64,000 nt of DNA from Eubacteriales bacterium (GTDB lineage: Bacteria; Bacillota; Clostridia; Lachnospirales; Lachnospiraceae), in contig JAUNPU010000011.1 in assembly GCA_030536555.1 (NCBI GenBank), positions 36,572-100,571 on the forward strand. Reading direction: 5' to 3'. The number at the start of each line of letters is the position of its first letter. Position 1 is the stretch's first letter. The notes under the pieces were generated by a model. The model searched no databases and was not told the origin of the DNA. It saw only the letters and a list, made by a program, of their open reading frames with translations. Shown here in pieces: positions 18,035-53,162 of this stretch. Made by a program: the position numbers and the translations under genes.

Positions 18035-18063
18035 TTGACAAACCAAATATAGTATGCTATCAT
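18035..18063 (+). promoter_or_regulatory. rplJL promoter
   Basis: TTGACA (18035-18040), a 17-bp spacer, then TATCAT (18058-18063). It lies just after the rplA stop and gives rplJL its own transcript. Confidence 0.8.
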
Positions 18064-18069
18064 ACACAA

Positions 18070-18191
18070 GTATTGACTGCCGAAGACAGCAGGTGCCGCA
18101 AGGCGTAAGTTGAACACACCTGCCGAGGAACATACAATTTCTTTATGATGAATTTGTAGAACCTCTCTGTCCCAGGACAGAGAGGTTTTTT
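18070..18191 (+). promoter_or_regulatory. L10 leader RNA with intrinsic terminator (attenuator)
   Basis: The leader contains the paired blocks AGGTG...CACCT around a GCCGCAAGGCG hairpin, the layout of the ribosomal protein L10 leader found in Firmicutes. It ends in a strong stem, CCTCTCTGTCC (18162-18172) with its complement (18175-18185), followed by six T. Excess L10-L7/L12 complex binding the leader is known to favour termination in this family. The rplJ start is 39 nt downstream. Confidence 0.82.
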
Positions 18192-18229
18192 CCTTGCAGT
18201 CTCCAAAATAAAACAGGAGGTAGATATTC

Positions 18230-41530: not shown

Positions 41531-42392
41531 AATACAGTCAGGCACATTTGGGGCGAAAGCGGTATACATTAAAGTATGGCATCTCGCATTCAGCTGGTGC
41601 TTTCTATAGATCAGGGCAACCTGGGCGGCGGACGTGAACTTGCAGGCGCGGAAGCCGCCTACATAGCGGTGGAGATTTAATTTTGGTGGGGATTTTGGAC
41701 AATAAATGGCAAAATCCGGTTCTTCCTGATTTTTATGTTTTTTGCTCAAAATATTTATTAAACTTGATGTTGGGCAAATATGGCTACCTTGAAATGCACT
41801 TTATTGTCCAATATTACCTAAGTATAGCAATATCCGTATGCTGCAGAACTTAACGTGTCACTGTGACTGGGATTATATATGCATTAATCAAAAAGAACAA
41901 TTTCATATGTAAAAATGACATAATTTACAGCGCTTAAATGTCAAAAATACATATGAAAATTGCGAAACATGGATTTCCATATGTATATTGGGAAGCTTTT
42001 ACATGAATTTGAATGAAAAATTACAGCTGAAATCGCAGAAAACATGTATTTCATATGTATTTTGGAAAAATGAGACCAAAGTCAGCACATAAGATAAGTG
42101 GTGCAAGGTGTTTGGATTATCACTGTGTCAAAATAAAGAAATTGTGCCCGATACCACGAGAACATAAATATTCGGAAGAACCCAAAATCCTTAAAAATTA
42201 TCCAAAGTCATGGAAAAGCGCTTGATATTTGGGCGGAAAAGAGGGAGTTTGGATAATAAAGGGCGGATTCTAAAGAAAATTGTCCAAAATTCTTGAGATT
42301 TTGGATAATTAGAGGGTGATTTGAAGAAAATTATCCAAAATTTGCTTTATGTCAACTGATTAAGCGGAGGAATCACGGTTTGCGAGGGGGGA
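41531..42392. other. AT-rich gene-free stretch rich in palindromes
   Basis: No gene is supported on either strand. The DNA drops sharply in GC after the tandem repeats. It holds the TTGGAYAAT palindrome array and the CATATG inverted repeat described separately. It may be decayed sequence or a landing zone for insertions. Confidence 0.6.
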
Positions 42393-50023: not shown

Positions 50024-50752
50024 ATGCTGAATATTTTATACGAGGATGAGCAGATTATCGTAGTGTGGAAGCCGGTGGGACTGGAATCCCAGTCCAGCCG
50101 CGGCTTCGGTGCTGACATGGTCAGCGAGATCCAGAGACATATACACAAGTTATCCCCAAAGGGCGGGGAACCTTATGTGGGAGTTATCCACAGACTGGAC
50201 AAGCCGGTCAGCGGCGTCATGGTCTATGCCAAGGAGAAAAAGACGGCTGCATCCCTGTCAAAACAGGTGGCTGACCACAAAATGACGAAAAAGTATCTGG
50301 CAGTGCTGTGTGGAAAACCGGTGGATAGTGTGGATAACTTTGTGGATTATCTGTTGAAAGACCCGGTGGAAAACAGTTCCAGAATTGTGGATAAGGGGAT
50401 AAACGGTGCCAAACGCGCCGAACTGCGGATGCGGGCTCTGGAGACGAAAGAAGTGGAGCCTTATGGAACGCTGACCCTGGCAGAAATCGAACTCCTCACC
50501 GGCCGCCATCACCAGATCCGGGTACAGATGGCAGGACGCGGACTGCCCCTGTGGGGGGATCGGAAGTATAATCCGGAGTTTGGCGGGGGGAAGCAGATGG
50601 GGAGAGGTGCAGGGCGCGGACGTATGGGGCGCATGGATGTGGGGTTGTCGGCTTATCAGATTGGATTTGTGCATCCGGGGACGGGGGAAAGGATGGAGTT
50701 TGAGCGGGTGCCGGATGGGGGGATTTTTGGAGAGTTTGTTGGGAGGGAGTGA
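50024..50752 (+). CDS. RluA-family RNA pseudouridine synthase
   Basis: A 242-residue enzyme. The catalytic motif HRLDKPVSGVMVYAK supplies the active-site Asp, and LAEIELLTGRHHQIRVQMAGRGLPLWGDRKY is the second conserved block. It lacks an S4 RNA-binding domain, like the short RluA-type enzymes. A Gly/Arg/Met-rich segment (GGGKQMGRGAGRGRMGRMD) replaces the usual short turn before the last strand. The RNA target cannot be told from sequence. AGGAGG precedes the ATG. Element A begins 18 nt after the stop. Confidence 0.9.
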   Translation: MLNILYEDEQIIVVWKPVGLESQSSRGFGADMVSEIQRHIHKLSPKGGEPYVGVIHRLDKPVSGVMVYAKEKKTAASLSKQVADHKMTKKYLAVLCGKPVDSVDNFVDYLLKDPVENSSRIVDKGINGAKRAELRMRALETKEVEPYGTLTLAEIELLTGRHHQIRVQMAGRGLPLWGDRKYNPEFGGGKQMGRGAGRGRMGRMDVGLSAYQIGFVHPGTGERMEFERVPDGGIFGEFVGRE

Positions 50753-50770: not shown

Positions 50771-51018
50771 GCAGAGAGGCAGGGGGGCGGAGGGGGCGGC
50801 TCCTGTCGCTGCGTTGGCAACTGGTAAGGGTCCATCCTGCCTGCGCAGGTGCCGTGGGACAACTCGAAAATGTACCTGATGTACATTTTCTCAGACAGGT
50901 CCCACTGAAATCCCCGTGTTGAAAACGGGGATTTCACACCTGCTCCGCCAGTCTGAACCCTAACCAGTTGCGAAACTCGCTCAATGTCCCCTCCCCCTCC
51001 GCCCCCCTGCCTCTCTGC
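50771..51018 (+). other. Structured element A (about 248 nt), plus orientation
   Basis: A fully foldable non-coding element. Outer stem P0: 26 bp perfect (50771-50796 with 50993-51018). P1: GCAACTGGT/ACCAGTTGC (50817-50825, 50963-50971) continuing through an A-A mismatch to AGGG/CCCT. P2: GCAGGTG/CACCTGC (50845-50851, 50937-50943). P3: GTGGGAC/GTCCCAC (50854-50860, 50899-50905). P4: 10-bp hairpin with loop CTGAT (50866-50890). P5: 11-bp hairpin with loop GTTGAAA (50907-50935). Unpaired blocks CCATCCTGCCTGC and CTCCGCCAGTCTG are identical in element B. No gene or transposase is seen. Confidence 0.88.
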
Positions 51019-51223
51019 TACATCCCTGGCTGCGTAAGAAACATAACTCCTTCCCGCTCAGATATGGAAACAATCGGAAGGAATCGGTTGAGCTGTAAAC
51101 GATTCTACCGCTGGTTTTGCAATTTTCCCCCACAGGGTGGGGGGAGAATTACTATGGCGATTGTGAAGCAGGATTAAGAGCAGAAGCGAAGCAAGGTTTT
51201 TGATGTAGAGGCCGAGAGACACA
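51019..51223. other. Spacer between elements A and B
   Basis: 205 nt without a convincing gene. It has a CCCCCACAGGGTGGGGG palindrome near 51129-51145; the rest shows no feature I can support. Confidence 0.5.
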
Positions 51224-51472
51224 GCCATGAGGCAGGCTGGCGGGAGTAAGGAACGACATGTGAACGAATCGCGGAGCTGGTTAGGGGACAGACTGGCGGA
51301 GCAGCTGTGGAAATCCTGTTTTCCAGACAGGATTTCCAGCGGGCCATGTTTGAGGGAATGTACATCAGGTACATTCCCGAGTTGCCCGCGGCAGCTGCGC
51401 AGGCAGGATGGCCCCTTAGCAGGTCCCGATGAGAGAACCGGAGTGACGGCTCACGCCAGTCTGCCTCATGGC
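51224..51472 (-). other. Structured element B (about 249 nt), minus orientation
   Basis: A homologue of element A on the opposite strand. Outer stem: 23 nt (51224-51246 with 51450-51472) with one G-T pair and one mismatch, different in sequence from that of A. Read on the minus strand: P2 GCAGCTG/CAGCTGC, P3 GCGGGC/GCCCGC, P4 GGGAATGTAC/GTACATTCCC with the same CTGAT loop, P5 GGAAATCCTGT/ACAGGATTTCC with loop CTGGAAA. Every stem pairs in spite of sequence differences from A. Confidence 0.88.
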
Positions 51473-51529
51473 GTATTTCCCCGATTAACCTTACGCTTCA
51501 TCCCCCCTCCCCCCACCCAACAAATCTCA

Positions 51530-51599: not shown

Positions 51600-53162
51600 A
51601 TGAACCAAAAAGCAGCGAAACAAAAAAACCTGACATGGTTTGCCAGATTTTTGAATGTAGTGGAAACTGCAGGCAACCGTCTCCCCCATCCGATTACCAT
51701 GTTCGCCATTCTGGCGGCATCGATCGTCCTGATATCCGGCATCTGTGCGATGCTGGGTGTATCCGCCACCGGCGAAATGATTGATTCTAAAACAATGGAA
51801 GTATCGGAACAGACCATCCGGGTCGTCAGCCTGATGAACCGGGAAGGATTTGCATACATGCTTACCCATGCGGTCAGCAACTTTACCGGCTTCGCCCCGC
51901 TGGGCGTGGTGCTGGTGACCATGCTGGGTGTAGGCTGTGCAGAAGGCAGCGGATATCTGTCCGCATTGATGAAGAAGGCCGTGTCCGTGACACCGGCTAT
52001 GATTGTAACCCCGATGCTGGTATTTCTTGGAGTCATGTCCAATGTGGCTTCTGACATCGGCTATGTGGTGCTGATTCCCATCGGCGCTGTGGTATTTATG
52101 GCCTACGGACGTCATCCGCTGGCAGGTCTGGCGGCAGCCTTTGCCGGTGTATCCGGCGGATTCTCGGCGAATCTGCTGATCGGTACGCTGGACCCGATGT
52201 TGGCAGGTATCAGCACCGAGGCGGCTCACCTGGTGGACCCGACCTACGTGGTGGAGCCTACAGCCAACTGGTATTTTATGATTGTCTCCACATTTGTCAT
52301 TGTGGCAATCGGAACCTTTGTAACGGACAGGATCGTGGAGCCGAGACTGGCAGCCCACCGCCATACGGGTGAGGATGCGGCGGCTCAGACGGCGCTGTCT
52401 GAGCAGGAGAAGAAGGCACTGCGTGCGGCGAACCTGACTCTGCTGGGCTTTATCGTGGCAGTGGCGGTGGCGGCATTTCCCCAGGATTCCTTCCTGAGAA
52501 ATCCGGAGACCGGCAGCCTCATGTCCGGTTCCCCGTTCATGTCCGGCATGATTGTGCTGATCTCTCTGCTGTTCTTCCTGCCGTCTGCGGTGTATGGAAG
52601 AGTGTCCGGCACCTACAAGAGCGAGAAGGACATCTGCGGTCAGCTGAGTGCCAATATGTCCGCCATGGGAAGCTACATCGCTCTGGCATTTGTGGCGGCG
52701 CAGTTCATCAGCTACTTTAACTACACCAAACTGGGCACGGTGCTGGCACTGAAGGGTGCGGCGCTGCTGGAACGCTCCGGCGTCAGCGGTCCGGTGCTGA
52801 TGGTATGCCTGATCCTGTTCTCCGCGCTGATCAACCTGCTGATGGGCTCTGCATCAGCCAAGTGGACGATTCTGGCGCCGGTGTTCGTGCCCATGTTCAT
52901 GCTGTTAGGCTATTCACCGGAGCTGACTCAGGTGGCGTACCGCATCGGTGATTCCTGTACCAACCTGATCACACCGCTGATGACCTACTTTGCCATGATC
53001 GTGGTATTTGCCAAAAAGTACGATGAGAATTCCGGCATCGGCACCCTGACGGCGACCATGCTGCCGTACAGCATTTTCTTCCTGATCGGCTGGTCCTTAC
53101 TGCTGGTGGTATGGATGGTGGCGGGACTGCCGCTGGGACCTGGCGTGGCACTGGGAATCTGA
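51600..53162 (+). CDS. AbgT family transporter
   Basis: A 520-residue integral membrane protein with about 12 helices. The AbgT family opening (WFARFLNVVETAGNRLPHPITMFAILA) and the conserved late segment (LLMGSASAKWTILAPVFVPMFMLLGYSPELTQVAYRIGDSCTNLITPLM) are clear. The E. coli prototype imports p-aminobenzoyl-glutamate, a folate breakdown product; some homologues export sulfonamides. No abgA/abgB hydrolase is adjacent, so the substrate is uncertain. A GGAGG site lies before the ATG and the promoter has an unusual C-tract spacer. Confidence 0.9.
   Translation: MNQKAAKQKNLTWFARFLNVVETAGNRLPHPITMFAILAASIVLISGICAMLGVSATGEMIDSKTMEVSEQTIRVVSLMNREGFAYMLTHAVSNFTGFAPLGVVLVTMLGVGCAEGSGYLSALMKKAVSVTPAMIVTPMLVFLGVMSNVASDIGYVVLIPIGAVVFMAYGRHPLAGLAAAFAGVSGGFSANLLIGTLDPMLAGISTEAAHLVDPTYVVEPTANWYFMIVSTFVIVAIGTFVTDRIVEPRLAAHRHTGEDAAAQTALSEQEKKALRAANLTLLGFIVAVAVAAFPQDSFLRNPETGSLMSGSPFMSGMIVLISLLFFLPSAVYGRVSGTYKSEKDICGQLSANMSAMGSYIALAFVAAQFISYFNYTKLGTVLALKGAALLERSGVSGPVLMVCLILFSALINLLMGSASAKWTILAPVFVPMFMLLGYSPELTQVAYRIGDSCTNLITPLMTYFAMIVVFAKKYDENSGIGTLTATMLPYSIFFLIGWSLLLVVWMVAGLPLGPGVALGI

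What the first reader, a model, noticed from the sequence alone, without database searches (positions are those of the whole stretch)
50771..51472. Twin ~248-nt elements with compensatory base changes: candidate undescribed structured RNA or mobile hairpin element
Two homologous copies sit in inverted orientation in one intergenic region. Aligned in the same direction, all internal stems are kept while their sequences differ. P2 swaps a G-C for a C-G. P3 changes a T-A to C-G and loses one whole A-T pair on both strands at once. P4 changes two A-T pairs to G-C. P5 changes four pairs (A-T to G-C, T-A to A-T, two C-G to T-A). The unpaired blocks CCATCCTGCCTGC and CTCCGCCAGTCTG and the P4 loop CTGAT are identical. 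Eight compensatory pair changes plus a co-deletion are hard to explain unless the fold itself is selected. I cannot match this architecture to a named RNA class from memory.
Basis: partly seen in the sequence, partly recalled or inferred. Interest (0 to 1): 0.93.

Follow-up and report, generated by a model that had tools for sequence, protein, structure and literature searches.

The report
Mobile paired branched-hairpin DNA element
The sequence is one of eight copies in this bacterium's genome of a paired DNA element whose two inverted halves are each predicted to fold into a branched hairpin; its paired bases change together with hardly any of the G-U intermediates seen in a true RNA of the same genus, and it is likely a mobile element that would be moved by an enzyme not yet identified.

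Summary
The twin elements are real. The window copy is one of 8 in its genome, all of them A-unit/spacer/inverted-B-unit composites. Covariance models find the branched core in at least 8 other genomes: 20 units in JAUNPZ01 (Lachnospiraceae), 34 in JAETOO01 (Oscillospiraceae), 1-3 in six more. In 68 units 96.7% of pair cells hold, with 581 double-change cells against 163 in shuffles. The fold is thus maintained, but hardly as RNA: on pairs predicted from both strands G.T is 0.3-1.9% of cells and never commoner than A.C; the L10 leader RNA of the same genus has 12.8% G.U and 0.6% A.C on its own fold. Against this, the reverse strand's own folds reach 2.7-6.8% wobble. Units carry end tags AC|GC...GC|TG, show no fixed orientation to genes, and one is missing at the matching site of a sister genome. 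No Rfam family matches; seven pattern scans of viral contigs found no true unit. Best reading: a REPIN-like non-autonomous mobile DNA element with unusually large branched hairpins. The enzyme is unknown: PF01797 (Y1/RAYT) was not found in this genome.

The parts
50771..51018 (+). A unit: 248-nt branched hairpin (outer stem P1 arms 50771-50799 / 50990-51018)
   Evidence: 8 copies in genome
50769..50770 (+). 5' end tag of the A unit: CC here; AC in 15 of the 16 units of this genome
50814..50974 (+). P2 stem region of A with conserved internal loops
50866..50890 (+). P4 hairpin of A with CTGAT loop; a loop ending in GAT, mostly (C/T)(T/G)GAT, recurs in every genome whose units were read, though not in every copy
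50906..50936 (+). P5 hairpin of A
   Evidence: (I5), helix 8
51019..51223 (.). spacer (205 nt), single hit in the genome; its first 11 and last 13 nt (TACATCCCTGG; GCCGAGAGACACA) are degenerate forms of the inner tags TGTTTCCTGGC / GCCAGTGCACA of other copies
51224..51472 (-). B unit: 249-nt branched hairpin in inverted orientation
51473..51474 (-). 5' end tag of the B unit (GT on +, AC on -)
50024..50752 (+). left neighbour: pseudouridine synthase (PF00849), not part of the element
51600..53162 (+). right neighbour: AbgT-family transporter (PF03806), not part of the element

Best explanation
The window holds one of eight copies of a 0.6-0.8 kb composite made of two inverted ~250-nt units with tagged ends and a variable spacer, each unit predicted to fold as a branched hairpin, and the composite is likely a non-autonomous mobile DNA element that would be moved in trans by an unidentified hairpin-reading enzyme. 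Shown: the 8 of 8 inverted A/B pairing, the tags AC|GC...GC|TG, dispersal beside ordinary chromosomal genes, relatives with the same core in at least eight other genomes, covariation with few wobble intermediates, and absence of a unit at the matching site in a sister genome. Inferred: when the strand is single (for instance at the replication fork) each unit folds; an enzyme of the kind that moves REP/REPIN and IS200/IS605 elements reads the hairpin foot, the tags and the conserved internal loops, and pastes a copy elsewhere. The stems would be kept perfect by selection for that DNA fold, helped by template-switch correction between hairpin arms; the local A/B similarity in this window fits such exchange.
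For: 8 A and 8 B units, all as A-> <-B pairs. Tag-plus-arm scan over 843,377 bases of this genome: 12 hits, all known A/B units (12 of the 16; the other four have an altered tag, are truncated, exceed one mismatch or lie across a cut between stretches); seven altered-tag controls gave 0, 3, 0, 0, 2, 1, 0; 0 hits in 5 block shuffles of the window, 1 in the window. In G061 four short units (112, 126, 150 nt and L139) have lost inner stems but keep the outer stem, and two B units are paired with hairpins of other sequence that carry the same tags (L127 139 nt, L130 300 nt). Covariation: 68 units, 96.7% of cells paired, 40 of 53 pairs with double changes, 581 double-change cells (163 in shuffles), slid controls 35-46% paired. 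DNA-like: on pairs found in both strands' folds, GT/AC cells are 3/27 of 1181 (G000), 25/27 of 1320 (G061), 35/56 of 3003 (G062); the L10 leader control in 21 genomes has 80/4 of 626 on its own fold and 8/0 of 231 on the common pairs. Double transversions: 59 of 191, 52 of 152, 170 of 297 double-change cells against 3 of 32 in the L10 leader. No gene orientation preference in 33 G062 units (11, 9, 9, 4). Insertion: at the C35 locus 16 of 21 congener loci show the same gene pair with 1-540 nt between, 13 of them at most 221 nt, against 756 nt here with a 636-nt composite; the pyruvate kinase/PLP decarboxylase junction in G410 has about 420 nt with a unit against 18 nt in G096, flanks 91% identical.
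Against: No mobilising gene is linked to any unit: 20 neighbouring proteins of units in four genomes gave no transposase in Pfam, other neighbours were only read by eye, and Y1_Tnp (PF01797) is absent from G000, with one copy in G061 and two fragments in G062, none with tagged hairpins beside them. No target-site duplication was seen by eye. The G410/G096 empty site is not clean: the G410 copy is truncated and bases next to it do not align. Copies within the genome are about 87% alike, so recent movement is not shown. G062 units have other ends and are not paired. With the fold predicted from the reverse strand alone, A.C cells (G.U on that strand) are 93 of 1373, 39 of 1454 and 109 of 3167, which an RNA from that strand would also give.
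Confidence: 0.65

Rival explanations
1. A structured non-coding RNA family (trans-acting, or a cis-acting leader/terminator) that happens to be multi-copy; compensatory changes preserve an RNA fold.
For: Strong covariation with conserved internal-loop and hairpin-loop residues across genomes. In G000 A.C cells exceed G.T cells 27 to 3 on common pairs, which equals G.U on the opposite strand; with the reverse strand's own fold wobble is 6.8% (G000), 2.7% (G061) and 3.4% (G062). On that strand internal loops can be read as tandem G.A pairs (by eye).
Against: On common pairs wobble is at most 2.3% on either strand, with no strand bias in G061 (25/27) and little in G062 (35/56); the L10 leader has 12.8% on its own fold, and 3.5% with 0 A.C on its 11 common pairs. 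Frequent double transversions. No fixed orientation or side relative to genes. Units always in inverted pairs in G000. No Rfam match at gathering score.
Confidence: 0.17
2. Passive palindromes: the fold has no function; old repeat insertions are kept palindromic by template switching between hairpin arms during replication (a mutational process), as proposed for RNA hairpins in PMC8794818.
For: Pairs change on both sides with few intermediates; A/B arms at this locus look exchanged. The PMC8794818 passages read describe this mechanism.
Against: Correction alone would be expected to remove the internal loops, yet 34 of 56 unpaired columns are invariant among 31 G062 units (66 of 186 paired columns; mean identity 0.91 against 0.88), and the same loops recur in other genera. 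Changes in neighbouring P1 pairs are uncorrelated (mean r 0.04 at distance 1), so no multi-base tracts were seen. Shared end tags are unexplained.
Confidence: 0.13
3. Ends of a now-lost or unseen autonomous transposon (classical MITE with double-strand terminal inverted repeats of ~250 bp) rather than single-strand hairpins.
For: Inverted A and B subtypes at fixed left and right positions, variable interior.
Against: Each unit is itself a palindrome with conserved loops, not a plain inverted end; units also occur singly (G062, several in G061); no duplication seen at flanks; A and B differ by about 29%.
Confidence: 0.05

Closest known systems
REPINs / REP doublets (BIMEs) moved by RAYT transposases (PMC3116915, PMC3733652, PMC8266576; abstract or passages read)
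   Same: Extragenic palindromes, inverted doublets with a less conserved spacer, compensatory changes in hairpins, an unpaired tag at the hairpin foot, conserved mismatches within the stem that in E. coli REPs are needed for enzyme activity.
   Different: REPs are 20-40 nt single stem-loops with GTAG or CGTC tags, predominantly in Proteobacteria; here units are ~250 nt, branched, tagged AC/TG, in Lachnospiraceae and relatives, and no PF01797 gene is found in the window's genome.
IS200/IS605 end hairpins (recalled, and passages in PMC8266576)
   Same: Hairpin plus foot tetranucleotide recognised as single-stranded DNA is the proposed mode.
   Different: No TnpA or TnpB linked; units here are inverted to each other; hairpins far larger.
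Bcr1, ERIC and YPAL intergenic repeats (table rows seen in PMC2267715 passages; further details recalled)
   Same: Intergenic repeats of about 70-185 nt in that table, able to fold.
   Different: Not paired composites with a branched core as far as I recall; sequences not compared here.
L10 leader RNA (RF00557), used as a control
   Same: Conserved fold with covariation.
   Different: 12.8% wobble and a 20:1 G.U to A.C ratio on its own fold; the element has neither.

Membership tests
REP / REPIN | short (20-40 nt) palindrome with GTAG or CGTC tag | tested here: not met
   units ~250 nt, tag AC|GC
REP / REPIN | inverted doublets in extragenic space | tested here: met
   8 of 8 composites in G000; not in G062. 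The 9 longest ORFs overlapping units in G061, G062 and G065 have no Pfam family
REP / REPIN | RAYT (Y1 transposase) in the genome, flanked by the repeats | tested here: not met
   PF01797 not found in G000; the G061 and G062 copies have no tagged hairpins beside them
REP / REPIN | cleavage of the single-stranded hairpin by the enzyme | not testable with these tools
   needs biochemistry
Structured RNA family | covariation with wobble tolerated on the transcribed strand | tested here: inconclusive
   not met on common pairs; on the reverse strand's own fold 2.7-6.8% wobble, below the L10 leader's 12.8% but not nil
Structured RNA family | match to an Rfam family at gathering score | tested here: not met
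   the MIR1437 hits (29.6 and 27.4 bits) are far below the cut-off of 168
Structured RNA family | expressed transcript | not testable with these tools
   no RNA-seq held
MITE | terminal inverted repeats and dispersed copies | tested here: met
MITE | target-site duplication | tested here: inconclusive
   none seen by eye at 8 loci; empty site not clean
MITE | parent transposon with the same ends | tested here: inconclusive
   none in the loci read or in 843 kb of the 3.59 Mb own genome; the rest was not scanned for tags

The most novel reading that the evidence does not exclude
A previously undescribed class of mobile DNA whose information is a branched single-stranded DNA fold: paired, tagged ~250-nt units that evolve by strict Watson-Crick covariation, conserve loop residues across genera, and are copied by an unknown hairpin-reading enzyme in Lachnospiraceae and relatives that need not be a RAYT.
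Probability: 0.33. Interest if true: 0.85.

Novelty: new variant of a known kind. Interest (0 to 1): 0.62.

Why it matters
It gives an example where strong covariation, usually taken as proof of a functional RNA, comes with a DNA-like signature (little wobble, frequent double transversions), and offers a simple control (G.T against A.C counts beside a true RNA of the same genus) for screens of structured RNAs. If the elements are mobile, Lachnospiraceae and relatives hold a REPIN-like system with far more elaborate hairpins and an enzyme still to be found.

Tried and rejected
Tried without result: blastn of the A unit in 60 relatives and of the 702-nt composite in plasmids and phages; seven pattern scans of viral contigs, of which only one search matched, in four contigs that failed the model; congeners with model R1, 0 of 23, with 121 candidates scored per genome; PF01797 as the enzyme; a gene between convergent units in G062; neighbouring-pair tracts in P1. 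Considered from recall and Rfam silence, not tested one by one: hammerhead-like core, attC sites, retron or group II intron RNA. In the genome-contig scan 8 of 31 stretches passed the model (7 of JAUNPZ01, 1 of JAETOO01); 23 did not. Copy numbers are lower bounds: the genome search scores only part of its candidates (7 per genome, up to 150), and blastn points to a further G096 unit (75% identity) that the model did not list. Dropped rows: one contig-end unit of G062 (L155) was left out of the 33-unit alignment; L110 and L120 were left out; L130, L136 and L139 have no row in the G061 tag list.

Literature: ten searches, seen as listings. None listed a description of this element; most subscription journals are not held. 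Read: PMC3733652 (outline with abstract, and passages), and passages only of PMC3116915, PMC8266576, PMC6006769, PMC12306157, PMC2267715, PMC8794818.

Full report
Observation. A lies at 50771-51018 (+) and B at 51224-51472 (-), between a pseudouridine synthase gene ending at 50752 and an AbgT-family transporter gene starting at 51600. Each folds far better than 200 shuffles, as RNA (z -13.6 and -9.1) and as DNA on the other strands (z -15.7 and -12.6). Rfam has nothing for it at gathering score in the window or in 20 loci with units; with permissive filters a microRNA-precursor model appears at 29.6 bits against a cut-off of 168, and two further hits are weaker still.

Copies in the own genome. 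blastn and a covariance model (R1, from the 163-nt core of 16 units) both give 8 A units and 8 B units; the remaining hits are the same places on the other strand or pieces of them. Every A faces an inverted B; the spacer of the window copy has no second hit, and spacers (92-291 nt) align with each other barely better than shuffles except for about 20-24 nt at an end. A units are 79-91% alike, B units 82-95%, A with B about 71%. The units therefore travel, or travelled, as a composite. The neighbours of the eight composites include genes for RNA polymerase beta', HrcA, GidB/RsmG, FtsH-like protease, glutamine synthetase III, UDP-galactopyranose mutase and RNase Y, that is, ordinary chromosomal genes. 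ORFs of 83-180 aa that overlap the composites lie almost wholly inside them.

Ends. Written in unit direction, the two bases before the outer stem are AC in 15 of 16 own units and the stem begins GC and ends GC; the next bases are TG in 14 of 16, leading to forms of TGTG(T/C)ACTGGC (B) or TGTTTCCTGGC (A). In G061, 17 of 18 units listed have AC|GC; the exception is L126. A scan for AC|GC-arm...arm-GC|TG over 843,377 bases of the own genome (window plus 40 stretches) returned 12 hits, all known A or B units; its reverse-complement form also returned 12, as it must, and seven altered-tag controls returned 0, 3, 0, 0, 2, 1 and 0. In G061 the same kind of scan found units shortened to 112-150 nt and two hairpins of other sequence (139 and 300 nt) standing as inverted partners of B units (sequences).

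Relatives. A pattern scan of genome contigs gave 31 stretches; 8 carry true units by model score, 7 from JAUNPZ01 (Lachnospiraceae bacterium S36M_St_66 = G061) and 1 from JAETOO01 (Oscillospiraceae bacterium S14_Bin4 = G062); 23 did not pass. Whole-genome search gave 34 units of at least 100 bits in G062, and the fetched G061 stretches hold 20. In G061 some units are A/B pairs and others B units without a recognised partner; G062 units are single and have other ends (GGACGAGAAG...CTTCTCTG). A second model from 68 units (R2) found 7 of 397 genomes of the family with a match, the own genome included; the six new ones carry 1-3 units by the model, and some are weak (best E 7e-9 in G426). Congeners: 0 of 23 by R1. 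A G410 unit ends in GC|TGTGTACTGGC like B units. Plasmids and phages gave no match, and seven pattern scans of viral contigs no true unit.

Covariation, and of what molecule. On 68 units, 96.7% of cells pair, 40 of 53 pairs have double changes, and 581 cells are double changes against 163 in shuffles; sliding the partners by 1-3 columns gives 35-46% paired. That alignment was fitted to the model and leans towards it; separate MAFFT alignments give the same picture. The telling point is the intermediates. In a true RNA of the same genus, the L10 leader in 21 genomes, 12.8% of cells on its own fold are G.U and 0.6% A.C. In the elements, on pairs predicted from both strands, G.T and A.C cells are 3 and 27 of 1181 (G000), 25 and 27 of 1320 (G061), and 35 and 56 of 3003 (G062). 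For a like comparison, the L10 leader has 8 G.U and 0 A.C of 231 cells on its 11 common pairs. On each strand's own fold the elements have, given strand, 6, 37 and 39 G.T cells (0.5, 2.7, 1.3%); reverse strand, 93, 39 and 109 cells that are G.U there (6.8, 2.7, 3.4%). These reverse-strand figures are the best point for an RNA made from that strand; they include pairs that only that fold proposes, and G061 shows no strand bias on common pairs. Double transversions, which have no wobble intermediate, make up 31%, 34% and 57% of double-change cells against 3 of 32 in the control. I read this as a fold kept mainly as DNA, by selection, by template switching between arms (mechanism described in PMC8794818, passages), or both. 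Changes in neighbouring P1 pairs of G062 are uncorrelated, so no multi-base tracts are seen; at the window locus, however, A and B share a block that no other copy has and are 78.7% alike in the core against 70.9-74.4% elsewhere.

Mobility. The 33 aligned G062 units show no orientation preference to their neighbours (11 divergent, 9 and 9 tandem, 4 convergent). One search skipped ORFs that overlap a unit, so this was checked apart: the nine longest overlapping ORFs (155-521 aa; seven in G062, one in G061, one in G065) match no Pfam family, so no unit is known to interrupt a recognised gene. At the C35 locus (DUF4015 and DUF1653 genes), 16 of 21 congener loci show the same two genes with 1-540 nt between, 13 with at most 221 nt; the own genome has 756 nt, 636 of them the composite; in 5 of 21 the second gene was not found in the stretch. 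One long congener interval (L205, 540 nt) holds a different, simpler hairpin with GTAC|GCC...GGC|TG ends. Between two genomes of one genus, the G410 junction of a pyruvate kinase and a PLP-dependent decarboxylase gene carries about 420 nt with a truncated unit where G096 has 18 nt, flanks 91% identical. No duplication of target bases was recognised.

Mechanism. I take the composite to be a non-autonomous, REPIN-like mobile element: inferred, each unit folds when single-stranded and is read at foot, tags and internal loops by an enzyme acting in trans. E. coli REPs offer the analogy of a foot tag plus a stem mismatch required by their transposase (PMC8266576, passages). Against it: no enzyme is at hand; PF01797 is absent in G000 and the copies in G061 and G062 have no tagged hairpins beside them; 20 neighbouring proteins of units in G000, G096, G251 and G410 gave no transposase in Pfam. 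It is not filed as a REP because length, tag and enzyme tests fail; it may still work like one.

Noticed in passing
window 18062-18200 (+) and 41593-41665 (+): Rfam matches: L10 leader (RF00557) and COG2827 RNA (RF02938).
   Followed up: partly
L127 (2100-2239 +) and L130 (2004-2304 +), genome G061: Hairpins of other sequence with the same AC|GC...GC|TG tags stand as inverted partners of B units: the tags seem able to bracket different hairpins.
   Followed up: partly
L205, interval between the P0002 and P0001 homologues, genome G022: A congener without the branched core has a ~100-nt near-perfect hairpin with GTAC|GCC...GGC|TG ends at the same gene junction.
   Followed up: no
L167, genome G065: A unit whose outer stem looks about 100 near-perfect base pairs long by eye, an unusually long natural palindrome.
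   Followed up: no
G000 A units and G062 units, first nucleotides of the unit: The 5' end of the unit (GCAGCG; GACGAG in G062) is also complementary to an inner block (CGCTGC; CTCGTC), a possible alternative pairing or pseudoknot seen by eye.
   Followed up: no
L100 1889-2097 and L148 4364-4463: Cobalamin and SAM riboswitches near G062 units, probably unrelated.
   Followed up: no
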